This document shows positions 31,260 through 58,200 of a stretch of 64,000 nucleotides of DNA, one piece after another (position 1 is the first letter of the stretch; every line of letters starts with the position of its first letter). Source of the stretch: Telopea speciosissima (taxonomy: Eukaryota; Streptophyta; Magnoliopsida; Proteales; Proteaceae); the NCBI RefSeq assembly GCF_018873765.1, contig NC_057923.1:12102413-12166412 (forward strand), written 5' to 3'. The position numbers and the translations under genes are program-made. Below the pieces are notes generated by a model. The model did no database searches, was not told where the DNA came from, and saw nothing but the letters and a program-made list of their open reading frames with translations.

Positions 31260-32073
31260 TAAAAAATGACTTTGTAATCTTTTTACAAAACATTACATTG
31301 GATCTAGATTTGTTTTCGATCATACACAGGCACTCTCGTTCCTCGATATCCCCAAGAGGATAGTGGATTCCATGTTGAGCACTATTTGATTCACTATACG
31401 ATACCATGAATCCAATACACCAATATGTAGTCTGAGAGATATTAGTCATTGGTGTGCCAAAACCTATGATATATTACGGCAACAATAAAGACCTCTTAGG
31501 TCAAAGGGCCAATCAAATTCTTAAAAAGAAAATATATTTTCTCAATTGCTGGCAATAACACATCTGAGACTCTCAAGTGATTTAGTTCAATACACATACA
31601 CGTATGAGTACTCACAATTGAGGAGTATGATGTAGGCCCATCCTGCAACGTAAAACTAATTGAAACCCAAATTGATCTGAATCAAAATTCCACCATAGAA
31701 TTATTTTATTCTCATCATGGATTAGTATTCCAATGCTTCAAGAAATACATCAATCCGAGGTCAGATGAAGAAGATATGACCTAAATGACAGAGGTTGTGC
31801 ATTGTGTTCAAAATATTGTTTCTACACAAGCAGTGAATTTACGTACATCTTAAGATATGGTACATTTAGAATTTTCAAAGACCAATTCATGAAAGTCGTA
31901 GATCATTGAGTGTTCTTTTCAACTCCACCAGAATCAGATTAATCCGACATCGAGAGCATGAGATATGTGTTTTCTATCGAGACTGCACAGTCCAGTCCAC
32001 CCAAACGAATTCAAGCCTAAGATCAAGAACTTGCCTAAGAAAGGCTGGCCCTTAACTAAGTCGAACTCGAGTC
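31260..32073. repeat. Left edge of duplication unit I, first part
   Basis: From TAAAAAATGAC (31260) this stretch matches 47935-48716 closely, for example GATGTAGGCCCATCCTGCAA in both. The match resumes at 36384 after the LTR-flanked element. The repeated sequence itself has LTR-like character but no defined ends. Confidence 0.9.
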
Positions 32074-35000
32074 TGTTGGATTTTTAATTATTTTAAAATT
32101 AAAGATTCAAAATACGGTTTTGTTGGAGTGTTGATTGCTTCCCTAATAGACACCTAAATAGCCAATAGGTGCCTATTGGAAGACTTGTTTGAGTGGCTAA
32201 CAAACAAGCCTTATGGGAAAATACATGAGTTGGGACATATCTCTTGGAGACATCCCTTAGGGGTGTCTCTTCCTCTCTTATATAAAGAGAGGAGGTCTTG
32301 CTCATTCTCTAACAATTGTTTTTGAAACACATTTTTTCCTTCCCCACCGTAGTCATTCAAATGTCGTTGAATTAGTGAATATAGCCTTTGGACGCCCTTT
32401 GTAATCACATTTGGAACCGCAACCTATGTGATTAGAGAGTTGTTTTATCTTGGGGGTATAGATGCATGGTCAACCCAGTGAATTGGGGCATCTAAAAACC
32501 TTAAGGAGAGCATTGTTTGATGCGACTCAACTCTACCATTTATTGTTCGGGTTATACAAGAGGACGTGTATTGTTGATGCGGTGCGATACTATCTCGCCA
32601 TACCAATCGGATAAGTCTTGTATGTACTATTTGTTTATAGTATTTCTAGTCTTATACTTGCTGCCCATGATATTTTACTCTTACAATCTTAAGGTTTTTA
32701 TATTGAGTATAAGACTATAGAATTGTCTTTTGTTTGCAATTCTGATTATTACGACAAACCGATAAAGATTTATGGGTAAGGCTGTTGAATTTCTTAGTTA
32801 TTAGAAATTCTCGCATCACAATCGTTCATGGCAGTGGGCCATCAATTTTTGTTGTGCCTTATATCATTGTGAGGGTTTGCAACGGTCGGGTTTGGAACCC
32901 ACACATTCTCTTCCCAAACATGTAGTTGTTGGTTGATAGTGGTTGATGGGTATTCATGATGATTGATATAGATTGCATGTATGTATAGTTGTTTGTGAGT
33001 TTTACATCATCAAAACAAAGAGTTTGGGCTTTGTTGTTTGTGAACCATCATACCGTTTAAATAGTTTTTTAATAGTTTGCCGTGTTTCGTTTTTCTGTTT
33101 AATAAACCGTTCAAGGTTTATTCGGATTGAAGAGTATGTCTCTCTTGCATAATGTGTTAACATGTATACAACTTGATTTTTGGTCACTCGGGAGAAAGGA
33201 TTGAGTACAAGATCTCAATGAGAAAACAATGACTAACAACATGTGTCAATCACTTATCAACAAGAGAGCAATTTTTTTTTTTTTTTTTCAATGTCTTGGT
33301 CTGTCTGTATATCGAGCATGAAGAAGAATTGCTTGCTTAATCGTGGGGCTGGTGAGATCAAGGGTCTATGTGCAAAGCAAAGCCGTTTCATCATGTGCAG
33401 GCATGCATCGGTTCAACATAGTGGCTGGAACAATTAGTGGAGAAGAATCTACGGATGAAATCATGTGCAACTATTCGGAAAGTTGCGGTTGGTTATAGGA
33501 AATTAAAGTGGGATTTTTTATAATCTTATAACCGTTAGTGGCAACTTGCATTTTCTTTCATTTCCTCTTATGTTGAAGTGATGTCTCTCTACTTATGAAT
33601 GAAACTTGTTTTAAAAATCAGTTCCAAAATTTGTCTTTATTAGACATGGGTTTTATATTATATGTATATTTCAGTTTGCTTTTGAATGGATGGAATTGTC
33701 AAAGAGACCATTTCATTCCTATTTTCGCAATGATTAGTTGATGAATGGTGATCACTAGAAATTATGATCGTTTAAAAAGACTCGTGTGACATATAAGTTG
33801 TTGGAAACTTTACATGACTTCTCATGAGAACAATACATAAAGCCGCGAACTTGACAGATACATATGGGAAGTATCACATTGGTTCCGATCCGATACATTT
33901 GGGAAACGTATATAAACTAAAGGAGACAAGTGTCTCTCAATTGTGCACGTTGGAATGGTTGTCATATATTGTGAACCATCGTGTCGTTTCTTTTAAAGCA
34001 TAATGGGGTTGTGAGGGCTATGAGAATCGGGTGAGTGTGGATCGATGGATTCCATAAGAACTCATTAGGTGCCTCTTCGGATGAGGTGTGATTCAAAAGA
34101 TTCGGAGATGGCCTCTTGACCGATACACCTTTTAATAAGAGGTGCATTGTGTTAGAGAAACAATGTTATCATGCATACGGTTATTGGTGAATGGGTATTT
34201 TATAATTCCATTTTGATGCTTGGGTCATGATAGTATCCGATTTTGGCTTTTTCTTTCAGTCTATTTCAACTAGCTTTTTTGTGTATACATTATACATATA
34301 ATAAATGATAGCGTTGTATGCTCCATGATTTTGTTGAAAGTCATGATCTTGAAATTGGTGGATATATCCATGTATTGTATTGGCTAATAAAGCCATGTAC
34401 CAAATTTGCTAGCTTAATTGATTATCAAATAAGTCAAGTGGCATTATATGATACATATTGGTCGAATGCTTAATCTATTAAGTATTTGTACATGTAATTA
34501 TGGATATATAAAATTGCATGGGAGCATAAATTTCATTTTATTATCATACTATTTTTGATATGCAAGTAAAGTTGCATGGGTAAGTTAGTATGGAAGTGTG
34601 GGAACTACAGTTTTCTCATGAGGGCATTCTCACATTAATTTGGCTTATATCTCTGAAAGTGATAAACCCGAAATGTGGGGGTTATTATGAGAATGTGTAT
34701 ATTTACATGTTGAGTCTCTTTTAAGAGATATATAAAGCCAAGTAGAATGATAATCTCTACTTGGAAATTGAATCTAGTAAATATGTTTAGATTCAATTAT
34801 GCAAATATTTGAACGATTACCTTGGTTCAAAGGTAGCATGTAAAAACATGTGTTGGTGGGGATGGTTCATGGAATTGGTAATATAAAGCCTAAGTTATAG
34901 GTTCCACCATGGTTTTATTTTTATGGCTTCGTAAGAAAGCCGGATCTGGAGCCATAAGGCTATGAATATAAATGATAGATATATGGTGATGACCAAAGCC

Positions 35001-36383
35001 AAATTGTGTTACGAAATACAAAGGGTATGGTCAGCAGAGAAATAAAGACTACTATGTCTTGATTACATATATCTGGTGAGGCTAAGTAACGTTACCGACT
35101 CAATATAGTCGGGACAAGAATGACTAATACTATTATATAGCCTCGACCATTATTTTGGTATACATTTAAGGAATGAGTTTAAAGCTCTTGTCATAGGTCA
35201 TGTGATGGACACCCAACCTATGTGAAGAGGTTTAACTCCCTGAATTAGGTTCAAAGGGTACAAACGAAGTCACCGGATGACCCGACTAGTACTACTAAAA
35301 TTTACTCATTCGGTTACTTGGGAAAGTAGTACCACCACAATGAAATGAGGATGAGTTAGATACTCTTAATCAAGCTAAATCCTACGAAATGTGGGGTGTG
35401 TTAAGCTGTGGTGCACACTGGCGACCTTAGTGGATGTAGGAGGTGTGGCCGCCTACCAATGAGAGTTTTAAAGGCGAACTCTTTAAACTTCCATGAGACC
35501 AAGATAAGGGACAAGGCCGGTTAAAAATGTCCAATTTTGTCATGAACGGGTTAAGTCACGTAAGGTCGATGGTAGGATATGGATGATGAGCTTGTCGGCC
35601 ACGCCAATGAGGAAAGGTTCAAAAGTCCGACTTCACCCATACTGTAGCGAAGTTCATCGACCTAGTGTAGGTTCAAGTCCGAAAGACACCCGTAACGATG
35701 TTTCCTACTATGTTTAATATATTCACTAATTCTGTTTTGTTTTATCGGTATTTTGAATCTGTGGGGGATTGTTGGATTTTTAATTATTTTAAAATTAAAG
35801 ATTCAAAATACGGTTTTGTTGGAGTGTTGATTGCTTCCCTAATAGACACCTAAATAGCCAATAGGTGCCTATTGGAAGACTTGTTTGAGTGGCTAACAAA
35901 CAAGCCTTATGGGAAAATACATGAGTTGGGACATATCTCTTGGAGACATCCCTTAGGGGTGTCTCTTCCTCTCTTATATAAAGAGAGGAGGTCTTGCTCA
36001 TTCTCTAACAATTGTTTTTGAAACACATTTTTTCTTCCCCACCGTAGTCATTCAGTGTCGTTGAATTAGTGAATATAGCCTTTGGACGCCCTTTGTAATC
36101 ACATTTGGAACTGCAACCTATGTGATTAGAGAGTTGTTTTATCTTGGGGGTATAGATGCATGGTCAACCCAGATTGCAGAATTGGGGCATCTAAAAACCT
36201 TAAGGAGAGCATTGTTTGATGCGACTCAACTCTACCATTTATTGTTCGGGTTATACAAGAGGACGTGTATTGTTGATGCGGTGCGATACTATCTGCCATA
36301 CCAATCAGATAAGTCTTGTATGTACTATTTGTTTATAGTATTTCTAGTCTTATACTTGCTGCCCATGATATTTTACTCTTACA
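32074..36383 (+). mobile_element. LTR-flanked non-coding element (LARD-like), young
   Basis: LTRs at 32074-32685 and 35770-36383 both start TGTTGGATTTTTAATT and end ACTCTTACA. They differ by about three substitutions and four small indels over 612 bp. The 5-bp target duplication GAGTC flanks the whole (32069-32073 and 36384-36388). The purine tract GTGGGGGAT precedes the right LTR. The 3.1-kb interior has no frame above about 65 codons and no gag or pol motif, which fits a large retrotransposon derivative dependent on a partner. It looks structurally whole. LTR divergence near 0.5% suggests insertion within the last few hundred thousand years at usual plant rates. The empty site is visible at about 48716. 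Confidence 0.92.
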
Positions 36384-36760
36384 GAGTCCAAGACCACCAT
36401 TCAGAAAAGGAACCAGCTCAAAATCAACAAAAGTCTTACTAGTGGAGAATCGCTACAATGCCTTAAACTACCCTAGTAGATTGATGATGTGGAGAGATTC
36501 TTAGTGGATGATGATGATGTGGCACTCTCTTTCAATACACTCTCTTAAAGATTGCATCAAAGCACCTTGAAACAATCTACCATGTCATGAGAGTCGAGAC
36601 TAGACCTTATGTCTTGAAACAATCTCTCATATGTCTTGATCGAGACTAGTCCCTATGTCTTAAGTATCTGTTTTCATCTATTTCTTTCTAAAGTCTTCTA
36701 TGTAATTTCAGTCCTTAGATCTCATGAGCATGTTAGTTTTTGCACTAGCTATGTGCCACT
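36384..36760. repeat. Left edge of duplication unit I, second part
   Basis: Continues the match to unit II (48717-49083), for example GTGGATGATGATGATGTGGC in both. With the LTR-flanked element and one copy of GAGTC removed, 31260-36760 and 47935-49083 align along their whole length. Confidence 0.9.
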
Positions 36761-38034
36761 AATTTCTGTACTTGGAATAGGGAATTTTGTGAATAAAAGT
36801 TGCTATAAGCACTCCATTGAACCAACATGTGTTCTTCTCTGTTAAACCTATAAGAGTTCAACAGTGAAGACCTTGTAGAGTTTTCTCATCTAACCTAGAA
36901 AAGTTAGGTGTTTTTCTTTGTGTTCCTTGCATTCTAAAAGAGTTGTAATAATACTCTTGGAGCTATTATACATCTTAGAAGAGAGGTGTTTTTATCCTAT
37001 ACATAATATCCCTTTACATAATAAAGAAGGGGTGGAAAAATATACACATAGGAGCATGCATACAAAATCACAAGTGAATTATTGCGAAAAGAGAGATACA
37101 GAGAGGTTAAAAAACGTAGAGGAAAAAGGTAAAATGCATGGGAGAAGGTGGGGTGTAGAAAGATGAAAATGAAAGAAATGGGAATCACATTTTTATTTTG
37201 TTTTCATAAATACCCATCTTCCCCTTGTAATCACCACATCCTCAAACATGCAAACTTGTCTTCATGATGCGAGGGCAAGATCTCAAGCGTTCATTGTTCC
37301 CTATTAGGGACTTGGGTCTCATCTTCCATGCGATAGTTGACGTGAAACCTGAGATCAAATCCTGAGAACCCTCGATTAAACGAAAATTTTCACGTCCCGA
37401 TTTTAATACCACTTGTTAAGAACTTGGGTCTCACCCTCAAAAATTAATCGTTAAGGACAGGGAGCCCAAATACCGATTAACCCACCTATATCTCTTTTCA
37501 TATTTAATGTGAGATTATTTTTTTTTTGTTTAATGCATAGGTAGCCCAACAATCTCTTCACTAACACTTCGTATAATGTATAATATGAATAGAACGAAAG
37601 AGGGAAAGACAATTCTACACCCACAATTGTTTTTAACGCAAAATATATTTGTATGTAAAATTTATCAAAGCAAACCGGTGACTTAGGTGTTAAGAAACCG
37701 ATTCAAGTTTGAGTGGGCCCCCTGCCCTTTTTCCCGTGAAGAGGAACCCATCAATCACTACCCTTGGAAATTAGGCTTTTTTATTGCCACAATATATAGT
37801 GTTGCAGGCCTAGATTGGGTTAGCGTAAACATGTGGAGGTCTCATGTCGTTTGACTATATCCCTCCTCATAAAGGCATGATCCCATCGTTTTTGTAGCGC
37901 TCTACGCAGTCAAATACGTCATAAACATGATAGAGACACACATTCCGCCGCGCACCACACCGTTCTGCTCTTTATTCTTTAAATACCCCCACCTCCCTCT
38001 TCTCTCTCGTATGTGTGTGTGAGTGAAAGAAGAG
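36761..38034 (+). promoter_or_regulatory. Upstream region of CYP72A copy 3
   Basis: From about 37180 (AATCACATTTTTATTTTGTT) it matches 49190-50030 upstream of copy 5. The proximal part keeps CATAAAGGCATGATCCCAT, GTCAAATACGTCATAAACAT (about 37910) and CTTTAAAT at 37977-37984. The region 36761-37180 has no counterpart in unit II, and no gene is seen in it. Confidence 0.6.
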
Positions 38035-41000
38035 ATGGGAGAAACTGGGTTCTTTTCAATGGTGATATTATGCATTTTGGTTGTATTATGGGGGGAATGG
38101 AAGGTGTTGGAATGGATATGGTGGAGACCCAAGAAGCTGGAGAGGCATCTCATGGTACAAGGCATCAAAGTCACTCCTTACAAGTTACTGTTGGGTGACC
38201 TGAAAGAGTTTCTGAGTCTGTTCAAGGAAGCGAAGTCCAAGCCCATGAACCTATCCCATGATATTGTTCCGCGTGTATTTCTCTTTCATCTTCAAATCAT
38301 ACAGAAATATGGTATGTTTTAATTCCAATTTTATTTTCACTGCAATTGTTCTTTCTTTGGGTAACAATGGAAGGTGATGTTTCCAAAAATCACTAGGCTT
38401 TTATGTTCTTTTAAGCCCTGAAAATACATTATATTTAGGATAAATTACACGTCACCTCCTGATTTTCGAACGAAACTCAGATCACCCATTGGTTTTGAAA
38501 AAACTCAAATCACTCCCTTAGCAGTAACGGTGTTAGTTTGTTGCTAGTTATTGGTGTGAAAGGACTATTTTACTCTTGTACTAAAACATTATAATTAAAT
38601 TCACAATACACTACTAAAGGGTAGTTTAGGGATTTAAATTTATTTAACTGGATGACATCATCACTTAACAGCATAAAACTAACGTTAGGGATGCTTTCAC
38701 ATTGGGTGTGTGAGTATAGTGTGTGTTGTGTATATCCGCCATTCCACGGTCCTAAAAGTCAGTTAACCTTTTGGGATTGGTGTGTGGTTTGTGTGATTAC
38801 ATTTTCATCAAATTAAAAAAAAGAAAAACCTAACATTAGGGACTAATTTGTCATATTGGGGTTTAAACCAGCGGGTGATTTGAGTTTATTCAAAAATCGA
38901 AGGGTGATCTGAGTTTCGTTTAAAAACTAGGGGGTGACGTGTAATTTACCCTTATACTTTATATGGGTAAAATTAAAAGAGAATTAATTGTTGATAATTG
39001 AAATTTGAAAATGTCAGGTAAACTCTCTGCCTTTTGGTTAGGAACAACTCCAGTATTGTATATAATGGATCCAAACCTAATTAGGGAGATAATGAGCAAC
39101 AAGTTTGGTCACTTTGAGAAGATCAAAGGTTTTGGACTCGCACGATATTTTATAGGCGGAGTTGCAGTCTATGAGGGTGAGAAATGGGCAAAACATAGAC
39201 GGATTATAAACCCAGCCTTTCATGTGGAAAAACTAAAGGTTTCTTCTATATCTTCGACATTTCCTTCTAATCCTTTTAAATGGATACATTTTCTGTAGTA
39301 GCTTTTCCATGCTATTGTGATAACATTGCTGATAGATTGTATATCTTCTTCTTTCTTTGTTAACTATCAAAGCGAATGTTATCGGCATTTTATACAAGCT
39401 CTAATGAGATGGTCAGCAAATGGGAAAAATTGGTTACATCAGCAGGGTCTTTTGAATTGGATGTGTGGCCAGAACTCCAATATTTAACAGGGGATGTCAT
39501 CTCTAGGGCAGCATTTGGTAGCTCTTATGAAGAAGGTAAACGGATTTTCAAATTACAAGATGAGCAAGGCCAGCTCATCATCCAAGCTTTGCAAACTGCA
39601 TTCATCCCTGGTTTTAGGTATAATTCATTTTTCTTATCTACTTGAGTTAGTTTTTACATTTTCTAGAATCAATTCAAATAATCAATATCCATTTTCAATA
39701 GCTACACAGAAAGCAAAATTTTTTCTTAGATACCTTAGCTTTTTTTGAACAAAAATGATAAAACTCATAAATAACCAATATATAATTCAAATCATGACAT
39801 AAAATGTTGTTGGGGTGCGATGTCTTGTATTTCATTGCTTGTATTAGTGGGCTGATTCCAAATGACCGTTAATAGACCATAGAGCTTGAAAATGTACCTA
39901 TTTAGGGTTTCGTTATATATTTATATTTGTAGTGAGACGGCTTTCTCTATAATTAATCTGAGAGAGCTTATTCTCCAATATTGATAGTAAAGTGAAATCA
40001 CCACTCATGGACATAGGCAATCTTACCAAACCACCAAAATCCTTATGCGTATTGTGTGATTGTTTATTTGTAATTTTTTCATTCTTTTCTGCATCGTTTA
40101 AGGTTCTCGTCTTTTCACAAATGCTAGCCATGAGTCATGACTTGTGACTTGATCCATAGTCAAGCTCACTCATGTTTAAATTTATTCATTTTGTGTCAAA
40201 AGAAAATGTGACAGATGTAAAGATATATATATCATTTTTTAATTCTTGCCCTCACCAATGTTATTATGTATATAGTTTGCTGCCAACGAAAAGAAACAGA
40301 AGAATAAAAGAAATTCACAAAGAAGTGCGAGCCCTTTTAATGGGTATCATCAACAAAAGACAACAGACCATGAGGGTTACAGAAGCCAGCAATGATGACT
40401 TGTTAGGGTTGTTACTTGAATCCAACGATAAGGAAATTCAAGAAAATAAAAACAAGAATGTTGGGATGAGCATAGAAGAGGTCATCGAAGAATGTAAACT
40501 ATTCTACTTTGCAGGGCAAGAAACCACCTCTGTTCTCCTTGTTTGGACAATGGTTGTATTAAGTATGCATTTAGAATGGCAAGTGCGTGCTAGGGAAGAA
40601 GTCTTACAAGTCTTTGGAAAGAACCACCCGGATTATGATGGACTAAATCACCTCAAAATTGTAAGGACTTGCTTTCAATTCCTATATGTTTTAGATATAT
40701 ATAGGGATCGTGATTTTTTATGGTGCGCTGCCCGTAGCGGCCTGTGCGGCCTAGATAGAGTGCTGTGCGTAATGTCCATCTTACCCCTGCCCAAGCACCT
40801 TGCTCGAGTAGGGGTAAGGCGGACATTGCATGCGGCACTCTGTCTGGGCCGCATAGGCCGCTATTAGGGGTACAAGTTTAACCCTGTCGGCCCGAACCCG
40901 CCCTGAGCCTGAACAAGGTCTGGGTTGAGATATTTGGCCCTAAGGACGGGTCAGGGCTGAAAATTTCTAACACTAAATCAGGGTTTGGTCGGGTTAGGGT

Positions 41001-42140
41001 TGAGGCCTGAGGCTAAGCTTGGCCCGGCCCAGCTCAAGCCTGATTTAAGTTATAGTATAAAATATGGGAAAAAGTTCTTTGTCTGGGAGTGTGGCCTACG
41101 CCAGCACTCCTATGAGTCTATCTCTCTCCTCCCCATGTGAAAAGACACCTCTGCTCTCTTGTTTTAAGGAGGAGAGAGATAGACACATGGAAGTGCTGGC
41201 GTAGGCCACACTCCCGTACAAAAAACTGCTTCCCATAAAATATATATTGGTATAATATATACATTATAAACTTTAAATGTCACCCATATTTTTGTATATA
41301 ATATATTATATATGAAGACAATAAGTGATATAATACCGTTTATTATAGTGTTATTTTATATAAAATTGATAATATTCTCCCCAGCCCATTCCAGCCCATG
41401 TATTTCTTTCCCTTTCCCCATGATCAGGGCCAATCAAGGTTACCCCAGCCCGACCCTATGGGCGGGTCAAGGTTGGATTTTTCTTGCCCTGAGTCAGGGT
41501 CGGGTCGGGTCGGGTCGGACCTGGGCCCAGCTAAGGAGACTTAGGGTTGGGCTAGGGTTCTATAAAACCCAGCCCATCCCGACCCTGTTGTAGCCCTAGC
41601 CGCTATGGGCAGTGCGCCATTGAGGATCTGTATTGTATATATAGACTCTATTAAATTTAGAACATAGTCTTTCTAACCTTTTCTTTTCATAATTAATCCT
41701 CCATTAATGCACAGGTTACCATGATTTTATACGAGGTTCTTAGATTATATCCACCAGTTTTATATCTTAGTCGGTGTACAAACAAGAACATAAAACTAGG
41801 AGAAATATCTCTTCCCCCTGGAATACAAGTAATGTTACCAATAGTCCTTCTTCACCATGATCAAGAAGTATGGGGTGAAGATGCAAAAGAGTTCAAACCA
41901 GAGAGATTTGCAGAAGGAATCTCAAAAGCCACAAAGAATCAAGTTTCATTTTTACCATTTGGTTGGGGTCCTCGAATATGCATTGGACAACAATTTGCGT
42001 TGACAGAAGCAAAGATGGCTTTAGCAATGATTTTACAAAGATTTGCTTTTGAACTTTCTCCATCCTATGCTCATGCTCCTGCCACTATAATAACTCTTCA
42101 TCCACAGCATGGTGCTCAAATCATATTACATAAACTATAG
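38035..42140 (+). CDS. CYP72A: Cytochrome P450, CYP72A family (copy 3), intact
   Basis: Exons 38035-38311, 39018-39238, 39373-39617, 40276-40660 and 41715-42140; 1554 nt, 517 aa, with consensus splice borders and no break seen. The start is the second ATG of the open stretch (38035), which matches the MGE start of all paralogues. Landmarks: N-terminal membrane segment ([16 protein letters not shown]), AGQETTS I-helix, EVLR (383-386), KPERF, haem loop [10 protein letters not shown] with Cys465. Exon 4 is two codons shorter than in copy 2 in the polar NKNKKN stretch. It is the sister of copy 5: both share TIR-element insertions in intron 1 and the nested hAT-in-MITE in intron 4. Predicted ER membrane monooxygenase; substrate unknown. 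Confidence 0.95.
38437..38952. mobile_element. Inverted-repeat element in intron 1 of copy 3
   Basis: Ends TAAATTACACGTCACC and GGTGACGTGTAATTTA are inverted repeats of about 60 bp, including words like GAAACTCAGATCACCC. The same element is in intron 1 of copy 5 (50439-50779), so it predates the duplication. Here it holds an extra roughly 130-bp insert (about 38690-38822) flanked by CTAACGTTAGGG and CTAACATTAGGG. That insert ends A-rich and resembles sequence at 47300-47395. Confidence 0.85.
39820..40110 (+). repeat. LTR-like fragment in intron 3 of copy 3
   Basis: Contains GGACATAGGCAATCTTACCA and related words shared with intron 3 of copy 5 (51830-52100) and intron 4 of copy 2. Copia LTR-like remnant present before copies 3 and 5 separated. 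Confidence 0.6.
40865..41598. mobile_element. hAT-type non-autonomous element with nested MITE
   Basis: Ends TAGGGGTACAA and TTGTAGCCCTA are inverted repeats. The 8-bp duplication GCCGCTAT flanks it (40857-40864 and 41599-41606), the hAT signature. Its subterminal parts are rich in GGGTCAGG/GCCCGACC words. A Mutator-type MITE (41066-41234) is nested inside and flanked by a 9-bp duplication ATAAAATAT. The paralogue in copy 5 (52834-53394) lacks that inner MITE. Confidence 0.93.
41066..41234. mobile_element. Mutator-type MITE nested in the hAT element
   Basis: 169 bp starting GGGAAAAAGTTCTTTGTCTG and ending AAAAACTGCTTCCC, with inner inverted words AGTGTGGCCTACGCCAGCAC / AGTGCTGGCGTAGGCCACAC. 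9-bp duplication ATAAAATAT on both sides. A relative lies at 55794-56148. Confidence 0.93.
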
Positions 42141-42328
42141 AATCATCATTTCTGGGTGATTACTATCATGAGAATCTTTCTTTGTAACTTATTTTGATAG
42201 TTTAATGTGTTTTGTACCAAATATATAATGTTTACATGTATTTGAAAAGGGATTTTCTTATTAACATTCTATCAAATAATTTGTTACTTTACTTTTTAAC
42301 CTTTTTCTTCTTAATACATTAAATATTT

Positions 42329-44338: not shown

Positions 44339-44574
44339 TAAATATTTTTCAATGAGTGTAAATATTGTCATTTAACCTATGTACGTACTTGAAATCTATG
44401 TATTACAACGACACATTTTATAATGATCTAATGATATGTCACTTTCAAATTATTTTTGAATTAAACCATCCATGCAAATAATTGCGAGGGATAGAGAGAG
44501 AGAGAGAGAAGTTTAAAAACAAGGAGAAAAATAGGTAAATATGCATGATAGAAGTAGGTGGACGGGATCTGGCT

Positions 44575-46960: not shown

Positions 46961-47586
46961 GCTACCCTTTGGAAATTAATAAGGCCTTGCCACAATAGTA
47001 AAACGGCCTACATGTGGAGGTCCCATGACGTTTGACACTTTTGACTATATCCTTCCCCACTGTTTTGTAGTGCTCGACACAGTCAAATACGTCATAAATA
47101 TTGTGGTGTGTGTTGTGAGGGATCTTTTATCTTCTCAATTTGCCAATCCGTATTTGACGGCAAGTACATCTAATAGAGGGAGATGGAAATGACTATCTTA
47201 CCCTTTGTTCAAATACACTATCCGAGGTGAGATCCATCTTCCTTTATTAGATGTACTTAATGTCAAGTATGATCCGGCAAATTGAGAGGATAAAAATTCT
47301 GTGTATATCCGCCATTTTGTAATCCTAAAAGTCAATTAATCATTTGGGATTAATGTGTGGTTTGTGTGATTACACTTTCATTAAAAAAAAATGTACGTCA
47401 TAAATATGATAGGATTGAGATAGACATTCCACCCAGTACTACCTTTGCTTCTTTCTTCACCACACCATTTCGCTTCTTATCCTTTAAATGCCCACCACCA
47501 CCTCCCTCTTCTCTGTCAAGTAGCTCCTGTAGTTGAGGTGTTCCAAATATTCTCTCTCTCTCTTTTGTGTGTTTGTGAAAGAAGTG
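46961..47586 (+). promoter_or_regulatory. Upstream region of the orphan exon 1 (copy 4)
   Basis: Matches 54735-55201 upstream of copy 6, including AGTCAAATACGTCATAAATA (about 47081) and TATCCTTTAAATGCCC (about 47478). A roughly 190-bp inverted-repeat MITE (about 47116-47305, ends GGGATCTTTTATCTTCTCAA / TTGAGAGGATAAAAATTC) is inserted here but not at copy 6. Confidence 0.65.
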
Positions 47587-47863
47587 ATGAGAGAAAGTGG
47601 GTTCATTTCAATTGTGATATTGTGCATTTTGGTTGTATTATGGTGGGGATGGAAAGTGTTGGAATCGATATGGTGGAGACCCAAGAAGCTGGAGAGGCTT
47701 CTCAAGGAACAAGGCATAAAGGTCACTCCTTACAATTTACTGTTTGGTGATTTGAAAGAGAACATGAGGCTGCTCGAGGAAGCTCGGTCCAAGCCCATGA
47801 ACCTATCCCATGATATTGTTCCACGTGTGTTGCCCTTTCATCTTCAAACCATACATAAGTTAG
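47587..47863 (+). pseudogene. Orphan first exon of a CYP72A gene (copy 4)
   Basis: A complete, open exon 1 (277 nt, the same length as in every copy), reading [20 protein letters not shown] then [20 protein letters not shown], and ending HKLG at a GTATGT donor. It encodes only the membrane anchor and the proline-rich entry region. No exons 2-5 follow: intron 1 stops in the middle of a MITE at 47934 and the left edge of duplication unit II begins. Closest relative is exon 1 of copy 6, which has the same MITE at the same intron position. It lost its remainder by lying at the duplication breakpoint (inference). If still transcribed it could give only a truncated anchor. Confidence 0.93.
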
Positions 47864-47873
47864 GTATGTTTTG

Positions 47874-47934
47874 CCGGATCCGACTCCTCTTCTTTCGCCT
47901 GCCCGGTACTACCGTGCACCCCCACACACAAGTG
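47874..47934. mobile_element. Half MITE at the duplication junction
   Basis: GGATCCGACTCCTCTTCTTT through CACCCCCACACACAAG equals the first third of the complete MITE at 55490-55672, then stops and continues as TGTAAAAAATAAC. No right half is present. Confidence 0.92.
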
Positions 47935-49083
47935 TAAAAAATAACTTTGTAAACTTTTTACAAAACATTACACTGGATTCAGATTTGTTTTTAATCATAC
48001 ACAGACTCTCGTTCATCGATTTCTCCAAGAGGGTAGTGAATTCCATGTTGAGCAGTCTTTTATTCACTATACGATACCATGAATCCAAGACACCGATATG
48101 TAGTTCGAGAGACATCAACCATTGGTGTGCCGAAACCTGTGATACATTATGGCAACGACAAAGACCTCTTAGATCAAAGGGCCAATCAAATTCTTAAAAA
48201 GAAAATATCTTTTCTCAACTGCTGTCAGTAACATATTCGAAACTCTTCAAGTGATTCATACTCACAATTAAGGAGTATGATGTAGGCCCATCCTGCAACG
48301 TAAAACTAATTGAAGCCCAAATTGATCCGAATCAAAATTCCACCATAGAATTATTTTGTTCTCATCATGGATTAGTGTTCCAATGCTTCAAGAAATACAT
48401 CAATCCGGGTTCAGACGAAAGAGATATGACCTAAATGACGGAGGTTGTGCATTGTGTTCAAAATCTTGTTTCTACACAAGCAGTGAGTTTACGTACATTT
48501 TAAAATATATTACATTTAGAATTTGCAAAGACCAATTCATGAAAGTCATAGATCATTGAGTGCTCTTTTCAACTCCACCATAATCAGATTAATCCGACAT
48601 CGAGAGCATGAGATATCCGTTTTGTATCGAGACTGCACAGTTCAATCCGCCCAAATGAATTCAAACCTAAGATCAAGAACTTGCCCAAGAAAGGCTGGCC
48701 CTTAACTAAGTCCAACTCAAGCCCACGACCACCATGCAGAAAAGGAACCTGCTCAAGATCAACAAGAGTCTTGCTAGTGGAGATTCGCTACAATGCCTTA
48801 AACTACCCTAGTGGATTGATGATGTGGAGAGATTCCTTAGTGGATGATGATGATGTGGCACTCTCCTTCAATACACTCTCTTGCAAATTGCATCAAAGAA
48901 CCTTGAAACAATCTACCATTTCTTGAGAGTCGAGACTAGTCCTTATGTCTTAAAACAATCTCTCATATGTCTTGAGACTAGTTCCTATGTCTTAAGTATT
49001 TGTTTTCATTTATTTCTTTCTAAAGTCTTCTATGTAATTTCAGTCCTTAGATCTCATGGGCATGTTAGTTTTTGCACTAGCTA
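47935..49083. repeat. Left edge of duplication unit II
   Basis: Matches 31260-32073 plus 36384-36760 without the LTR-flanked element. The uninterrupted sequence AACTCAAGCCCACGACCACC at about 48715 is the empty site for that element. Confidence 0.92.
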
Positions 49084-49734
49084 TTGTAAGCTTATAAAAT
49101 GCCACTAATTAATCATGGGAATCCTAGATATTTTAGAAAATACAGAAATTGGATCATTTGCACGTATTTGAACGTACATCTCATAGCCAATCACATTTTT
49201 ATTTTGTTTCCATAAATACCCCTCTTCCCCTTATAATCACCACTTGTTCAAACATACAAACTTGTCTTCATGATGCGAGGACAAGATCTCAAGCGTTCCT
49301 TGCTCCATCGATCGTATCCCTATCACTGTTAGGGATTTAGGTATCATCGTCAAAAGCTAGTCATCGGTCAAACAAAAATTTCTACGCCTCGATTCGAATA
49401 CCACTTTTTAGGGACTGGGGTCTCATCTTTAAAAGCTAGCCGTTAAGGAGAGGGTGTCCAAGTACCTATTAACCCACCCATATCCCCTTTCATATTCAAT
49501 GTGAGACTATTTTTTTTACTTTATGCGTGGATATCCCAACAATCTCTTCACTAGTACTTCGTATAATGAATAGAACCAAAGAGGAAAAGAAAATTCTACA
49601 CCCACCTTTTTTTTAACGCAACATATATTTTTAGGTAAATTTATCAAAACAAGCCGGTGACTTGGGTACCAAGAAACCGATTCAAGTTTGAGTGGGGCCT
49701 CCACCCTTTTTCACGTGAGGAGGAACCCATCAAT
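49084..49734. other. Spacer upstream of copy 5
   Basis: From about 49190 it parallels 37180-37740 (AATCACATTTTTATTTTGTT; ACTTGTCTTCATGATGCGAG). No gene seen. Confidence 0.6.
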
Positions 49735-50030
49735 CACTACCCTTGGAAATTAGGCTTTTTTGTTGCCACAATAAATAGTGTGTTGCAGGCAGGCCTGGAT
49801 TGGGTTAGCGTAAACATGTGGAGGTCTCATGTCGTTTGACTATATCCTTCCCCATAAAGGCATGATCCCATGGTTTTTGTAGCGCTCGACGCAGTCAAAT
49901 ACGTCATAAACATATTAGAGATACACATTCCGCCCGGCACGTACCACACCATTCTGCTCTTTATCCTTTAAATGCCCCTTACCTCCCTCTTCTCTCTCGT
50001 ATGTGTGTGTGTGAGAGCGTGAAAGAAGAG
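49735..50030 (+). promoter_or_regulatory. Proximal upstream region of CYP72A copy 5
   Basis: Contains CATAAAGGCATGATCCCATG, GTCAAATACGTCATAAACAT (about 49894, TGACG core on the minus strand) and CTTTAAAT at 49966-49973, in the same order as in copy 3. Role inferred from conservation among paralogues. Confidence 0.55.
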
Positions 50031-53000
50031 ATGGGAGAAACTGTGTTCTTTTCAATGGTGACATTATGCATTTTAGTTGTATTATGGTGGGGATGGAAGG
50101 TGTTGGAATGGATATGGTGGAGACCCAAGAAGCTGGAGAGGCATCTCAAGGAACAAGGCATCAAAGTCACTCCTTACAAGTTACTGGTGGGTGACCTGAA
50201 AGAGTTTCTGAGTCTGTTCAAAGAAGCGAAGTCCAAGCCCATGAACCTATCCCATGATATTGTTCCACGTGTATTTCCCTTTCATCTTCAAACCATACTG
50301 AAATATGGTATGTTTTAACTCCAATTTTATTTTCTCTGCAATTGTTCTTTCTTTGGGTAACAATGGAAGGTGATGTTTTCGAAAATCACAAGACTTTTAA
50401 TTATGTTCTTTTAAGCCCTGAAAATACATTATATGCCTAAGGTAAATTACACATCACCCTTTGGTTTTCAAACGAAACTCAGATCATCCCCTGGTTTTTG
50501 AAAAAACTCAAATCACCCCCTATGCAGTAACGGTGTTAGTCTGCTGTTAGTTATTGGTGTGAAAGGATTATTTTGCCCTTGTACTGAAACATTATAATTA
50601 AATTTACAATACATTGCTAAAGGGTAGTTTAGAGATTTAAATTTATTTAATTGGGTGACATCATCACTTAATTAACGACATAAAACTAACGTTAAGGACT
50701 AATTTGTCATATTGGGGTCTAAACCAGGGGGTGATTTGAGTTTCATTTGAAAACTACGAGGTGACGTGTAATTTACCCTTATATTTATATGAGTAAAATT
50801 AAGAGAATTAATTGTTGATAATTGAAATTTGAAAATGCAGGTAAAAACTCTGCCTTTTGGTTTGGAACAACTCCAAGATTGTATATAATGGATCCTAACC
50901 TAATTAGGGAGATTATGAGCAACAAGTTTGGTCACTTTGCGAAGATCAAAGGTTTTCGACTTGCACGGTATTTTATAGGTGGAGTTGCAGTCTATGAGGG
51001 TGAGAAATGGGCAAAACATAGACGGATTATAAACCCTGCCTTTCATGTGGAAAAACTAAAGGTTTCTTCTATATCTTTGACATTTCCTTCTAATCCTTTT
51101 AAATGGATACATTTTCTGTAGTAGCTTTTCCATGCTATTGTGAAATTGTTGATAGATTGTATCTTTTTCTTCTTTGTTAATTATTAAAGCGAATGTTATC
51201 GGCATTTTATACAAGTTCGAATGAGATGGTCAACAAATGGGAGAAATTGGTTACATTAGAAGGGTCTTGTGAATTGGATGTGTGGCCAGAACTCCAAAAT
51301 TTAACAGGGGATGTCATCTCTAGGGCAGCATTTGGTAGCTCCTACGAAGAAGGTAAACGGATTTTCAAATTACAAGATGAGCAAGGCGAACTCATCATCA
51401 GGGCTTTTCAAACTGCATTCATCCCTGGTTTTAGGTATAATTCATCTTTCTTATCTACTTGAATTTGTTTGCACATTTTCTAGATTCAAATCAAATAACC
51501 AATATCCATTTTCAATAGCTACATATATAGGAAGGAGGGGGAGAATTATTACCTCAATTTGCCTGCCCGTCAATTTCCTCAATTCCCTCTAATAAAGGGA
51601 GGTGGATCCCACCCGGGCAGTGTGTTCGGGCAGGGGGTAAGGTGATCATTTCCACCCGTTATTAGATGGAATTCAGGAAATTGAGGGGGCAGGTAAATTG
51701 AGGGAATAAAGATCCATACCCTAGCTCTTTTGAACAAAAATGATAAATGTGTTCTTGAAGTATGACATTGATAACTCATACATAAACAATATATAATTCA
51801 AATCATGACATAAAATGTTGTTGGGGTGCAATGTCTTGTATTTCGTTACTTGTATTAGTGGACTTATTCTAAATGACCGTTAAGAGGCCGTAGGGTCTGA
51901 AAGTGTACCTATTTAGGGTTTCACTATATATTTGTAGCGAGACAGTTTTCTCTATAATCAATCTGAGAGAGCTAGGTATGAGGACAAGAGATTGTAATGT
52001 TATTTTCCAATATTGATAGTGAAGCAAACTCATCTCTCGTGGACATAGGCAATCTTGCCGAACCACTTACATCTTTGTGCACATCGTTTACAAATGCTAA
52101 GTCATGAGTCACGACTTGACCCACGGTCAAGCTCATTCATGTTTAAATTTATTCCTTTTGTGCCAAAAGAAAAGGTGACAGGTGTCAAGATAATTTCTTT
52201 TTTCTATTGTTGCCCTCACCAATATAATTATGTTTGTAGTTTGCTGCCAACGAAAAAGAACAGAAGAATAAAAGAAATTGACAGAGAAGTTCGAACCCTT
52301 TTAATGGGTATCATCAACAAAAGACAACAGACTATGAAGGTTGCAGAAGCCAGCAATGATGACTTGTTAGGGTTGTTACTTGAATCCAACGATAAAGAAA
52401 TTCAAGAAAATAAAAACAAGAAGAATGTTGGGATGAGCATCGAAGAGGTCATCCAAGAATGTAAACTATTCTACTTTGCAGGGCAAGAAACCACATCTGT
52501 TCTCCTTGTTTGGACAATGGTTGTATTAAGTATGCATTCAGAATGGCAAGTGCGTGCTAGGGAAGAAGTCTTACAAGTCTTTGGGAAGAACAAACCGGAT
52601 TATGATGGATTAAATCACCTCAAAATTGTAAGGACTTGCTTTCAGTTCCCATCTGTTTTAGATATATATATAGGGATCGTGATCTTTTACGGCGCGCTGT
52701 CCGTAGCGGCATGTGCAGCACAGACAAAGCATCGCGCGCAATGTTCACCTTACCTCTGCCCGAGCGCCTTGCCCAAGCAGGGGTAAGGCGGACATTGCGC
52801 GTGACACTCTGTCTCGGTCGCATAGGCCGCTACTAGTGGTGCAAGTGTGGCCCTATCGACCCGAACCCGCCCTAGCCCACCCTGAGCCCGAATAGGGCCT
52901 GGGTTGAAATATTTGGCCCTAAGGACGGGCCAGGGATGAAAATTTATGACCCTGAGTCAGGGTCCGGTCGGGTTAGGGTTGAGGCCTCAGGCTAAGCTTG

Positions 53001-53934
53001 GCCCGGCCTAGCCCGGCCCGACCCTGATTTAAGTTATATTATAAAATATATATTGGTATAATATATACATTATAAACTTTAAATGTCACCTATATTTTTT
53101 TATATAATATATTATATATGAAGACAATAAGTGATATAATATATTTTATTATAGTGTTATTTTATGTAAAATTGATAATATTCTTCCCGGCCCATTCCAG
53201 TCCATGCATTTCTTTCCCCTGCCCCATGATCAAGGTCAATCAAGGTCAGCCCAGCCCGACCCTGAGGGTTGGTCAGGGTTGGAATTTTTTGGCCCTGAGT
53301 CAGGGTCAGGTTGGGCCTGGGCCCAACTAAGGGGACTCAGGGTCAGGCTAGGGTTGTATAAAGCCCGACCCAACCCGACCCTGATGTAGACCTAACTGCT
53401 ACGAGTAGCGTGCCGTAGAGGATCTGTATTGTATATATGGACTCTATTAAATTTAGAACATAGTTTTTCTAACCTTTTCTTTTCTTAATTAATCCTCCAT
53501 TAATGCAGGTTACCATGATTTTGTATGAGGTTCTTAGATTATATCCACCAGTTTTATCTCTTGATCGGTGTACATACAAGAACATAAAACTAGGAGAAAT
53601 ATCTCTTCCCCCTGGAATACAACTAATGTTACCAATAGTCCTTCTTCACCATGATCAAGAAGTATGGGGTGAAGATGCAAAAGAATTCAAACCAGAGAGA
53701 TTTGCAGAAGGAATCTCAAAAGCCACAAAGAATCAAGTCTCATTTTTCCCATTTGGTTGGGGTCCTCGAATATGCATTGGACAACAATTTGCGTTGACAG
53801 AAGCAAAAATGGCTTTAGCAATGATTTTACAGAGATTTGCTTTTGAACTTTCTCCATCCTATGCTCATGCTCCTACCACTATAATAACTCTTCATCCACA
53901 GCATGGTGCTCAAATCATATTACATAAACTATAG
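50031..53934 (+). CDS. CYP72A: Cytochrome P450, CYP72A family (copy 5), intact
   Basis: Exons 50031-50307, 50841-51061, 51190-51434, 52240-52627 and 53509-53934; 1557 nt, 518 aa, with standard splice borders and no break seen. N-terminal anchor ([20 protein letters not shown]), AGQETTS I-helix (about 328-334), EVLR (384-387), KPERF (438-442) and [10 protein letters not shown] with Cys466. Every P450 signature is in consensus form. It is the duplicate partner of copy 3, from which it differs by scattered substitutions, for example SLDRCTYKN for YLSRCTNKN in exon 5, inside the variable region after the K-helix that often affects substrate fit. Expected to work in the ER membrane with NADPH-P450 reductase. 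Substrate class not deducible. Confidence 0.95.
50439..50779. mobile_element. Inverted-repeat element in intron 1 of copy 5
   Basis: Paralogue of 38437-38952 (TAAATTACAC...GTGACGTGTAATTTA ends) without the extra 130-bp insert: here the interior reads ACTAACGTTAAGGACTAA straight through. Confidence 0.85.
51537..51715. mobile_element. MITE in intron 3 of copy 5
   Basis: Ends ACCTCAATTTGCCTGCCC and GGGCAGGTAAATTGAGGG are inverted. The centre CACCCGGGCAGTGTGTTCGG is shared with the insert at 55888-56058. Absent from intron 3 of copy 3, so it arrived after the duplication. Confidence 0.85.
52673..53427. mobile_element. MITE split by a hAT element, intron 4 of copy 5
   Basis: Same arrangement as 40704-41630: outer MITE with GGGGTAAGGCGGACATTGCG, and a hAT element at 52834-53394 flanked by GCCGCTAC and the diverged ACTGCTAC. 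Lacks the inner Mutator-type MITE. Confidence 0.85.
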
Positions 53935-54349
53935 AATCATCGTTTCTTGGTGATCTCAATCATTGGAATCTTTCATTGTAACTTATTTTGATAGTTTAAT
54001 GTGTTTTGTACCAAATATATAATGTTTACATGTATTTGAAAAGGGATTTTCTTATTAACATTACGTCAAATAATTTGTTAATTACTTACTTTTTAACCCT
54101 TTTCTTCATATTACATTAAATATTTTCTAATGAGTGTAAATATTGTCATTTAACCTATGTACGTACTTGAAATCTGTGTATTACAACGACCCATTTTATA
54201 GTGATATAATGATATGTCATTTTCAAATTATTTTTGAATTGAACCATCCATGCAAATAATTGTGAAGGATAGAGAGAGAGAGAGAAGGGCTAAAAAATAT
54301 GGAGAAAAAAAAAGATAAATATGCATGATAGAAGTAGGTGAACGGGATC
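53935..54349. other. 3' flank of copy 5
   Basis: Parallels 42141-42328 and 44348-44570 downstream of copy 3 and shows the empty MULE site. A short GA run lies at 54271-54285. No gene. Confidence 0.75.
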
Positions 54350-54537
54350 TGACTTCTCTCCAGGGAGCTAAGCATCCAGAGAGTGCCTAAGTGGGTATCT
54401 AACGGCTGGACTATACCGTACACATCTTGGCATATGTACAGTAAACCATCAGGATGTGTGTGGCACAGTCCAATGGCGAAATAACCCCCTTGGGCACTCC
54501 TTGCCACTGGGCCGCCTAGAGAGGAGCTCAATCCAGG
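54350..54537. mobile_element. Palindromic MITE downstream of copy 5
   Basis: Paralogue of 44575-44757 (CTTCTCTCCAGGGAGCTAAG / AGAGAGGAGCTCAATCC). Confidence 0.75.
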
Positions 54538-54734
54538 TGGGTGAGGGTGTGGAATGAAAGATAAATATAAAAATTTGGGATGCAAAAGATGAAGATGAAA
54601 TAGGTGGGAATCCTAGATATTTTAGAATGGGAAGATAATTAAAAGGGGTAACAGAAAAACCATTCAAACATTTCTTCATATGATGTGAGAAAAAGATCCC
54701 AAGCGTTCCTAGCTCCATCGCGCGTATCCCTATC

Positions 54735-55140
54735 ACTACCCTTGGAAATTAATAAGGCCTTGCCACAATAGTAAAACGGCCAACATGTGGAGGTCCCATG
54801 ACATTTGACACTTTTGACTATATATCCTTCCCCACTGTTTTGTAGCGCTCGATGTATTTAAATACGTCATTAATATTGTGATGTGTGTTGTGTATATTCA
54901 TCATTTTACGGTCTTAAAAATTGATTAACTTTTTGAAATTGATGTGTAATTTGTGTGAGTACATTTTTATTAAAATTTAATGAAAAAATACGTCATAAAT
55001 TTGATAGGATAGGGATGCAGATTCCACCCAGTACCTTTGCTTCTTTCCTCACCACACCATTTCGCTTCTTATCCTTTAAATGCCCACTTCTCACTTCTCT
55101 CTTCTCTCTGAAATAGCTCCTGTAGTTGAGGTGTTCCTAG

Positions 55141-55176
<36 letters not shown>

Positions 55177-55201
55177 CTTGTGTGTGTTTGTTAAAGAAGT
55201 G
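54735..55201 (+). promoter_or_regulatory. Upstream region of CYP72A copy 6
   Basis: Shares with copy 4 the blocks ACCCTTGGAAATTAATAAGG, AAATACGTCATTAATATTGT (about 54859), a second TACGTCATAAATTTGATAGG (about 54988) and TATCCTTTAAATGCCC. A CT microsatellite (55143-55172) lies 30 bp before the start codon, in the likely leader. Confidence 0.55.
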
Positions 55202-58200
55202 ATGCAAGAAAGTGGGTTCAGTTTAATGGTGATATTGTGCATTTTGGTTGTATTATGGTGGGGATGGAAGGTGTTAGAATCGATATGGTGGAGACCCAAG
55301 AAGCTGGAGAGGCTTCTCAAGGAACAAGGCGTGAAGGTCACTCCGTACAATTTACTGTTTGGTGATTTGAAAGAGAACATGAGACTGCTCAAGGAAGCTC
55401 GGTCCAAGCCCATGAACCTATCCCATGATATCGTTCCACGTGTGTTGCCCTTTCATCTTCAAACTGTACGCAAGTTAGGTATGTTTTGCCAGATCCGATT
55501 CTTCTACTTCTACCTACCCGGTACTACTATGCGTCCCTACACGCAAGCATGGCGGCAAGTACTGCCTTACCGTCGCTCGGATAGGGGTAAGGCGGTACAT
55601 TCCGCCTTGCTTTTGTGTGGGGGGCGCACACGATAGTAGGGATAGGCGAAAGTAGAGGAGTCGAATTGATCTGCTTCCGATTTAAAATTTTCTTTGCAAT
55701 TTTTTTTTTTGGTTTTATGAATAGTTATGTAACAATGGAAGGTGATCACAAGCCAAATCTTAGCGATCTATTTTTACTATTTTTTTTTTTTTTTGGAAAA
55801 AAGAACTCTGTGCAGGAGTGTGGCCTACACCAACACTCCCATGACTCCATCTCCCTCCTCCCCATTTGAAATAAATTCATTTTTTTTTTCTCCCAGGTTC
55901 CTTGCCCGGTATGGTTGTTCGGTTCTTCTCATAGGGGAGCCGAAAATGACGACTTCACCCCACCCGGGCAGTGTGTTCGGGCAGGGGGTTAGGTCGTCAT
56001 TTCAGATCCCCTATAAGAGCAACTGGACAACCGTACCGGGTAGGGAACCCGAGAGGATAATGAACCTTATTTTGAGGAGGAGAGAGATAGACACTTAGAC
56101 ACATGGGAGTGCTGGCGTAAGCCATACTCTCGGGCAGGAAACTATTTTTCTTCTTTTTTTAATCTAGAACGTTTGTTCCCAATCTGAGTTGGAAGAGTAC
56201 ACAAATAATGTCATAAAGTATTGGTACACATGTATGGACATACACGGAATGTGTGCAAAAAATAAGAAATCATCAATAGTATAAGTAATGGATCTGGTAC
56301 GGATTTGGTTCTTCTCTTTTTCACTCGCTTTTAAGTTCTTTTAAACCCTAAAAGAACTTATATTATTATGGGTGAAAGAAAATTAGTTGTTGATAATTGA
56401 AATTTGAAACTGCAGGTAAAACCTCTGCATTTTGGTTTGGAACAAATCCAAGATTGTATATTATGGATCCTAACCTAATAAGGGACATTATGAACAAGTT
56501 TGATCAGTTTGTGAAGATCAAAGGAAATCGACTAACGCGGCTTTTTATTGGTGGACTTGCTACCTATGATGGTGAGAAATGGGCCAAACACAGAAGGATT
56601 ATAAACCCAGCCTTTCATGTGGAAAAACTAAAGGTTTCTTCTATATGTTTGACATTTCCTTCTATTCCTTTTAAATGGATACATTTTCTGTGGTAGCTTT
56701 TCCATGCTTTTGTGATATTGCTGATAGATTGTATCTTCTTCTTCTTTGTTAATTGTTAAAGCGAATGTTATCAGCATTTTATACAACTTCTAATGAGATG
56801 GTCAGCAAATGGGAGAAATTGGTTGCCTCAGAAGGGTCTTGTGAATTGGATGTGTGGCCAGAACTCCAAAATTTAACTGGGGATGTCATCTCTAGGGCAG
56901 CATTTGGTAGCTCCTATGAAGAAGGTAAACGGATATTCAAATTGCAAGGTGAGCAAGCTGAGCTCTTCATCCAGTCTTTTCAGACAGCATTCATCCCTGG
57001 TTTTAGGTACAATTTATGTTTCTTATCTCTTTTCCTATTGGGTATTACTAGTGTTGCACAAAGAAAGGTGCCCGAGGGTGTTCCTCAAACACTACAACCT
57101 TAAAACTAGATCAGACTAGAAACGATTATGAAAAACGAAGATCACTCTTTAGGGCTTCTTGATTTCTCTATTGATGAAATATTTCAATCGAATTACATGG
57201 GTGCAAGGACCCCTATTTATACAAGTTTCTCTTTTCAGCCCTCTTTCTCTGAACCTTTCTTGGATCCGCCAGATGGCTTTCCTTCTTTGTAAGGTGATTC
57301 CCCTGTGCTTGGATTAGGAAACCCTTCAAGAAAGGGAGATCCTCTCCTCAGATCCCAGGATCCGGAATCTTCTCGTACGCGGATTACGTTTACCAGCCTC
57401 CATCCACTAGGGCGCTCCAAACAGATCTTGTTGACGTATCTAGACCAATACAACGGTTTCGCTAGTGGTCCGATCTATTCTACACGTGGTCTAGTGGCTT
57501 GGACTCCAAGCCACTCCACGTGCCATCCTCGGATTGGGTAGATAAAATATGGTGTATCAACTAGCAATAAACCAATATCCATTTTCAATTGCTTCATTTG
57601 ATCCTTGTCCTCACCAATGTTATTGTGTGTACAGTTTTCTGCCAACGAAAAGGAACAGAAGAATGAAAGAAATTGACAGAGAAGTTCGAACCCTTTTAAT
57701 GGGTATCATCAACAAAAGACAGAAGACTATGAAAGTCGCAGAAGCCAACAACGATGACTTGTTAGGGTTGTTACTTGAATCCAATGATACAGAGATTCAA
57801 GAAAATAAAAACAAGAAGAATGTTGGGATGACCATAGAAGAGGTGATACAAGAATGTAAACTATTCTACTTTGCAGGGCAAGAAACCACTTCTGTTCTTC
57901 TTGTTTGGACAATGGTTGTATTAAGTATGCATTCTGAATGGCAAGTGCGTGCGAGGGAAGAAGTTTTACAAGTCTTTGGGAAGAACAAACCGGGTTTTGA
58001 TGGACTAAATCACCTCAAAATTGTAAGGACTTGCTTTCCCATCAGTTTCAGATACATATAGAGTTTATTAAATTTAAAACAGAGTTTTTTCTGAACTTTC
58101 CCTAATCCTCCATTGCAGGTTACCATGATTTTATATGAGGTTCTTAGATTATATCCACCATTGTTATTTCTTGATCGGTGTACATACAAGAACATAAAAC

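What the first reader, a model, noticed from the sequence alone, without database searches (positions are those of the whole stretch)
31260..55549. Orphan P450 exon 1 is the scar of a segmental duplication breakpoint
Unit I (31260-47934) and unit II (47935 to about 55549) align from the same left edge (TAAAAAATGAC / TAAAAAATAAC), through the upstream flanks and a complete CYP72A gene (copies 3 and 5), into exon 1 and intron 1 of a second gene (copies 4 and 6). Unit I stops in the middle of a MITE that is complete in copy 6, and the next base starts unit II. The shared AAG plus a TG filler at the join suggests microhomology-mediated joining. The roughly 9.1-kb length difference is nearly all explained: LTR-flanked element 4.3 kb, MULE 2.0 kb, tandem units 2.0 kb, three small inserts, and about 0.3 kb near 36.8-37.2 kb.
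Basis: partly seen in the sequence, partly recalled or inferred. Interest (0 to 1): 0.85.

Follow-up and report, generated by a model that had tools for sequence, protein, structure and literature searches.

The report
Half-copied P450 gene at duplication joint
In what looks like a plant cytochrome P450 gene cluster, a stretch of roughly 7.6 kb was copied side by side and one copy stops inside the next gene, leaving a lone first exon; this is an ordinary but unusually readable scar of how such clusters grow.

Summary
Nine collinear blocks align 31260-47934 with 47935-55549 and cover 7260 of 7615 bases of unit II; 50 shuffles gave no match. Copy 4 is exon 1 only (47587-47863). Trees pair copies 4+6 and 3+5. 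The join lies in the left arm of a foldback element that is whole in copy 6 intron 1. Of a net length difference of 9060 bp, 8986 is accounted for.
Best reading: a tandem duplication of about 7.6 kb whose right break fell in copy 6 intron 1, so copy 4 was born truncated; an LTR element, a MULE-like element and an A-X-A-X-A array were added to unit I later.
Corrections: the microhomology is weak (three bases; chance 0.019, or 0.054 with filler). A same-family foldback element 0.7 kb left of unit I is the one homology found near both break points. A larger duplication later trimmed by a deletion cannot be excluded without an outgroup; copy 4 exon 1 has changed less than noncoding DNA, which mildly favours that, gene conversion or residual use.
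New member of a known kind: a P450 detritus exon with a readable origin.

The parts
31260..47934 (+). Unit I of the tandem duplication (left edge possibly 31259)
47935..55549 (+). Unit II of the tandem duplication (left edge possibly 47934)
47932..47937 (.). Junction: end of foldback-element arm (CACACACAAG), two ambiguous bases TG, then the left edge TAAAAAATAAC
38035..42140 (+). P450 copy 3, five exons: 38035-38311, 39018-39238, 39373-39617, 40276-40660, 41715-42140; open frame
47587..47863 (+). P450 copy 4: orphan exon 1, open frame with ATG and GT donor; exons 2-5 not found
50031..53934 (+). P450 copy 5, five exons: 50031-50307, 50841-51061, 51190-51434, 52240-52627, 53509-53934; open frame
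55202..58544 (+). P450 copy 6, five exons: 55202-55478, 56416-56633, 56762-57006, 57635-58022, 58119-58544; open frame; sister of copy 4
55491..55673 (.). Palindromic foldback (MITE-like) element in intron 1 of copy 6 (outer edges set by eye)
   Evidence: 55481-55700 folds as DNA at -48.4 kcal/mol, z -6.08
47876..47934 (.). Left arm of the same element in copy 4 intron 1, ending at the junction
32074..36383 (.). LTR-flanked element only in unit I: LTRs 32074-32685 and 35770-36383, GAGTC on both sides (by eye), single site in unit II
   Evidence: LTR K2P 0.0066 over 609 sites
42321..44347 (.). MULE-like element only in unit I: about 203-bp terminal inverted repeats, TAAATATTT at both ends (by eye), single site in unit II
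44707..46961 (.). A-X-A-X-A array in unit I: A about 248 bp (single copy in unit II, 54491-54733), X about 753 bp with no match in unit II

Best explanation
An ancestor carried the left flank, the copy 3/5 gene, and the copy 6 gene with a palindromic foldback element in its intron 1. A stretch of about 7.6 kb, from the present 31260 to the middle of that element, was duplicated head to tail by joining ends without long homology (end joining or template switching, perhaps helped by the palindrome). The left unit therefore ended inside intron 1 of the second gene and the next base began the second unit, so copy 4 was born as exon 1 alone while copy 6 stayed whole. Shown: collinearity, edges, sister pairs, cut versus whole element. 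Inferred: one step rather than two, the joining pathway, the role of the palindrome.
For: Nine-block collinear chain over 7260 of 7615 bases of unit II, none in 50 shuffles. Exon 1 tree pairs 4+6 and 3+5 (both starred, 100/99), also with 120 bp of upstream DNA; exons 2-5 pair 3+5 (100/100). Copy 4 follows copy 6 through exon 1 into the left arm of a foldback element both of whose arms are present in copy 6 (z -6.08). On the plus strand at 1e-5, 29373-31259 has no match to 45900-47934, and 55550-57500 none to 47935-50000. Elements found only in unit I have near-identical repeats (LTR pair K2P 0.0066, A-X units 0.015) against 0.128 for noncoding DNA between units, so they came later.
Against: A more permissive search does find one homology near both break points: the same-family foldback element at 30452-30593 matches the copy 4 arm on both strands (30528-30593 inverted, 30454-30508 direct). 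Divergence between units is uneven: noncoding K2P from 0.063 to 0.186, and 0.294 in 71 bases at the junction. Copy 4 exon 1 has a short branch (0.012 against 0.053 for copy 6); relative-rate counts 3-4 against 9-11, p 0.057-0.18 with four outgroups. A hand count from the codon table gives six changes, at most seven, on the copy 4 branch against 13.7-17.7 expected if neutral since the duplication (P of seven or fewer 0.038 and 0.004). Its frame is still open.
Confidence: 0.75

Rival explanations
1. A larger tandem duplication first made a complete copy 4 and a longer left flank for unit II; a later deletion ran from intron 1 of copy 4 to the present left edge of unit II and left the orphan exon.
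For: Gives the same junction. Would explain why copy 4 exon 1 kept an open frame and changed less than expected for neutral DNA.
Against: Needs two events, and no trace of extra duplicated DNA was seen in the window self-comparison. The copy 4 branch omega (0.49) differs neither from 1 (p 0.66) nor from the other branches (p 0.82), so selection on copy 4 is not shown.
Confidence: 0.15
2. Unequal crossing over between two same-family foldback elements (30.45 kb and copy 6 intron 1), followed by a deletion of about 0.7 kb to the present left edge.
For: Same-family element at 30452-30593; the last bases of the copy 4 arm (CACACACAAG) also occur there.
Against: The join goes straight to 31260; of 30594-31259 nothing matched at the junction. 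By eye, the middle of the copy 4 arm matches copy 6 rather than the 30.45-kb element.
Confidence: 0.05
3. Assembly artefact: two paralogous stretches wrongly joined at 47934/47935.
For: The junction rests on one assembled sequence; no reads were available.
Against: The units differ by K2P 0.128 in noncoding DNA and carry different insertions, so they are not one stretch assembled twice.
Confidence: 0.05

Closest known systems
Detritus exons of P450 gene clusters (term seen in one passage of PMC4365919, which cites Nelson et al. 2004 among others; those not read)
   Same: A lone P450 exon left beside full genes in a cluster grown by duplication.
   Different: Here the sister copy, the cut point and the element that was cut are still readable.
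Tandem duplications from error-prone double-strand-break repair (passages of PMC7407515, a review; the rice study it cites, Vaughn and Bennetzen 2014, not read)
   Same: Head-to-tail copy joined with little homology. The review also notes cancer tandem duplications of 3 kb to 1 Mb, often with microhomology, and hairpins at palindromes as a possible source.
   Different: The rice insertions in that passage are 10-1000 bp; this one is about 7.6 kb, old, and truncates a gene.
Hybrid CYP3A transcripts in which CYP3A43 exon 1 is joined to CYP3A4 or CYP3A5 exons (one passage of PMC1890557)
   Same: A P450 first exon near a paralogue with compatible splice phase.
   Different: No RNA evidence here, and copy 4 has no exons of its own beyond exon 1.

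Membership tests
Cytochrome P450 | Matches the P450 profile | tested here: met
   Pfam p450 for copy 6 exon 4 (6.6e-21) and exon 5 (2.1e-37); copy 6 protein against CYP3A4 chain 5vcd_A 9e-42
Cytochrome P450 | ExxR, PERF and haem-binding F..G.R.C.G motifs (motifs from recall) | tested here: met
   Present in copies 3, 5 and 6; copy 2 lacks exact PERF
CYP72A | Closest relatives are named CYP72A proteins | not tested
Tandem duplication | Adjacent, same-orientation, collinear copies beyond the genes | tested here: met
Tandem duplication by non-homologous joining | No homology between the joined end points | tested here: met
   No plus-strand match at 1e-5; the only homology found by the permissive search is a foldback element 0.7 kb from the left end point
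Tandem duplication by non-homologous joining | Single-unit ancestral state in an outgroup | not testable with these tools
   No genome held for the window
Microhomology-mediated joining | Shared bases beyond chance at the join | tested here: inconclusive
   Three bases, chance 0.019, or 0.054 with 0-2 filler bases
Foldback MITE | Short element with long inverted repeats, more than one copy | tested here: met
Foldback MITE | Target-site duplication and a transposon superfamily | tested here: inconclusive
   Only a possible 3-bp repeat (GCC/GCT) by eye; superfamily not assigned
LTR retrotransposon | LTR pair and 5-bp target duplication | tested here: met
   (target duplication by eye)
LTR retrotransposon | Coding region | tested here: not met
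   No stop-to-stop frame of 120 aa or more between the LTRs; at most a non-autonomous element
MULE | Long terminal inverted repeats and 9-bp target duplication | tested here: met
   203-bp inverted repeats at 90.6%, TAAATATTT at both ends by eye
MULE | Transposase or relation to a known MULE | not tested
   Not searched; hence called MULE-like

The most novel reading that the evidence does not exclude
The orphan exon 1 is kept as an alternative first exon: transcripts starting at copy 4 splice from its intact GT donor to exon 2 of copy 5, 2977 bases downstream, giving a P450 with a different membrane anchor. The joined frame is open over 518 residues, and copy 4 exon 1 has changed less than expected for neutral DNA.
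Probability: 0.06. Interest if true: 0.5.

Novelty: new member of a known kind. Interest (0 to 1): 0.25.

Why it matters
Stray P450 exons are known in clusters (passage of PMC4365919). Here one join gives the edges, the broken gene and the order of later insertions, so it is a clean case for testing how tandem gene arrays grow and whether palindromic elements mark break points. It does not change what is known about the process.

Tried and rejected
Own-genome search: no genome is held for this window. Rfam (gathering threshold) and tRNA scans found nothing. Left edge as a strong hairpin: weak, z -1.33. The A-X-A-X-A array as an LTR or TRIM array: A does not begin TG or end CA, so not adopted. 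Selection tests on copy 4 exon 1: neither omega 1 nor the shared omega rejected (my own codon-model script, tree fixed, 92 codons). Microhomology as proof of a pathway: dropped. Paper searches, of which I saw listings: 25 papers, 15 listed; 7; 3; 1; 2; 1; 4; 13, 8 listed. Passages only were seen of PMC1890557, PMC4365919, PMC3017797 and PMC7407515; PMC3017797, on a banana resistance-gene cluster, gave general background that I do not rely on. None of the listings named this locus, but the species is unknown to me and the searches were by topic. Public sequence collections were not searched for relatives: none offered holds plant genomes.

Full report
What was checked. The window holds six loci of one P450 family; that it is a plant is my inference. 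Exon peptides of copy 6, searched against the window, place copy 1 at 16617-19600 (broken), copy 2 from 24678, copy 3 from 38035, copy 4 at 47587-47865 (exon 1 only; 47863 after setting the splice site), copy 5 from 50031 and copy 6 from 55202. With GT/AG introns, copies 2, 3, 5 and 6 read through as proteins of 518, 517, 518 and 517 residues without internal stops. Pfam assigns P450 to copy 6 exons 4 and 5. The subfamily name CYP72A was not tested.

The two units. Blastn of 31260-47934 against 47935-60000 gives 31 rows, nine of which form a chain in one order and strand. The chain covers 7260 of the 7615 bases of unit II. Fifty shuffles of unit II (in 2-base blocks) and its reversed sequence give no plus-strand match at 1e-5. 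The chain runs through intergenic DNA, introns and exons. The left edge is sharp and may lie one base earlier than reported. On the right, copy 4 follows copy 6 through exon 1 and the first bases of intron 1 and stops at about 55547. On the plus strand, 29373-31259 does not match 45900-47934, and 55550-57500 does not match 47935-50000. A more permissive search finds one exception: the foldback element at 30452-30593 matches the copy 4 arm on both strands.

The element at the break. Intron 1 of copy 6 carries a foldback element with arms 55493-55519/55640-55666 and 55535-55571/55586-55622. The stretch 55481-55700 folds as single-stranded DNA at -48.4 kcal/mol against a shuffle mean of -26.2, z -6.08, with 0 of 200 shuffles as good. 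Copy 4 has only the left arm. In 56 compared bases of the arm, copies 4 and 6 differ at 14, of which 10 read C>T or G>A from copy 4 to copy 6; this would explain part of the high divergence at the edge (K2P 0.294 over 71 bases). Methylation as the cause is inference.

Relationships and order of events. The exon 1 tree pairs copies 4 with 6 and 3 with 5 (starred, 100/99); the third inner branch is open. With 120 bp upstream the same pairs appear, and exons 2-5 pair 3 with 5 at 100/100 (six and five rows, small trees). Noncoding K2P between units is 0.128 over 5266 sites in the 13 noncoding blocks taken together, with single blocks from 0.063 to 0.294, so the divergence is uneven. Coding dS between copies 3 and 5 is 0.099 (NG86). 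The LTR pair of the element found only in unit I differs by 0.0066 and the A-X tandem units by 0.015, so these are later than the duplication. The net length difference of 9060 bp is assigned to within 74 bp (8986), counting one interval where unit II is longer by 194 bp.

The join. It reads CACACACAAG, TG, TAAAAAATAAC. The left flank of unit I ends in AAG, so three bases are shared. Two random points of the window share three or more bases with probability 0.019, or 0.054 when 0-2 filler bases are allowed. Relatives of the element have CA where the join has TG, so TG may be mutated element sequence rather than filler. I describe the join as lacking long homology, with the pathway unresolved.

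Is copy 4 dead? It keeps an ATG, an open frame and a GT donor. Its branch is shorter than that of copy 6 (0.012 against 0.053). Changes at sites where all other copies agree: 3 (2 N, 1 S) in copy 4, 8 (4 N, 4 S) in copy 6. Relative-rate counts are 3-4 against 9-11 with four outgroups, p 0.057-0.18. By hand from the codon table I count six changes on the copy 4 branch, seven with an ambiguous one, against 13.7 (from dS 0.099) or 17.7 (from noncoding 0.128) expected if neutral since the duplication: P of seven or fewer 0.038 and 0.004. Against a slow exon, silent divergence between copies 4 and 6 in exon 1 is not low (dS 0.152, dN 0.042). A codon model gives omega 0.49 on the copy 4 branch, not different from 1 (p 0.66) or from the other branches (p 0.82). 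Different mutation rates, gene conversion, a late truncation or residual use could each explain this; the data do not choose. Spliced to exon 2 of copy 5, 2977 bases away, it would give an open 518-residue frame; that follows from the family's shared intron phase and is no evidence of use.

Comparison with known things. Detritus exons in P450 clusters are in print (passage of PMC4365919), as are tandem duplications from inaccurate break repair and hairpins at palindromes as a possible source (passages of PMC7407515). A P450 exon 1 spliced to a neighbour's exons is reported for human CYP3A43 (passage of PMC1890557). None of the eight paper listings named this locus, but the species is unknown to me, so this says little.

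Verdict. It is a new member of a known kind, of modest interest.

Noticed in passing
16519-17144: A second, much younger tandem duplication in copy 1: about 312 bp holding most of exon 1, 311 of 311 aligned bases identical, leaving a truncated exon 1 (residues 1-72, frameshifted) upstream of a full one.
   Followed up: partly
38035-42140 against 50031-53934: Copy 3 has changed faster than its sister copy 5, mostly at replacement sites: 30 N and 16 S against 8 N and 13 S with copy 6 as outgroup, p 0.003; 31 and 16 against 9 and 14 with copy 2, p 0.006.
   Followed up: partly
44707-46961: A-X-A-X-A array: the 753-bp GC-rich X has no match in unit II while A is single copy there; units are 98-99% alike, suggesting recent unequal exchange. 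X was not identified.
   Followed up: partly
5799-5980, 18455-18636, 40705-40858, 52704-52833: Further foldback-like elements with weak similarity to each other; the last three lie in P450 introns, two of them at matching places in copies 3 and 5.
   Followed up: no
22207-23543: A 215-residue frame that looks like a copia-type RNase H end (from recall; no Pfam match at 0.01) between repeats 22207-22535 and 23204-23543, 90% alike.
   Followed up: no
61059-61445: A tubulin exon (Pfam Tubulin 1.3e-13) just beyond the P450 cluster.
   Followed up: no
1585-1758, 10069-10807, 59063-59753: Other short direct duplications at 93-98% identity.
   Followed up: no
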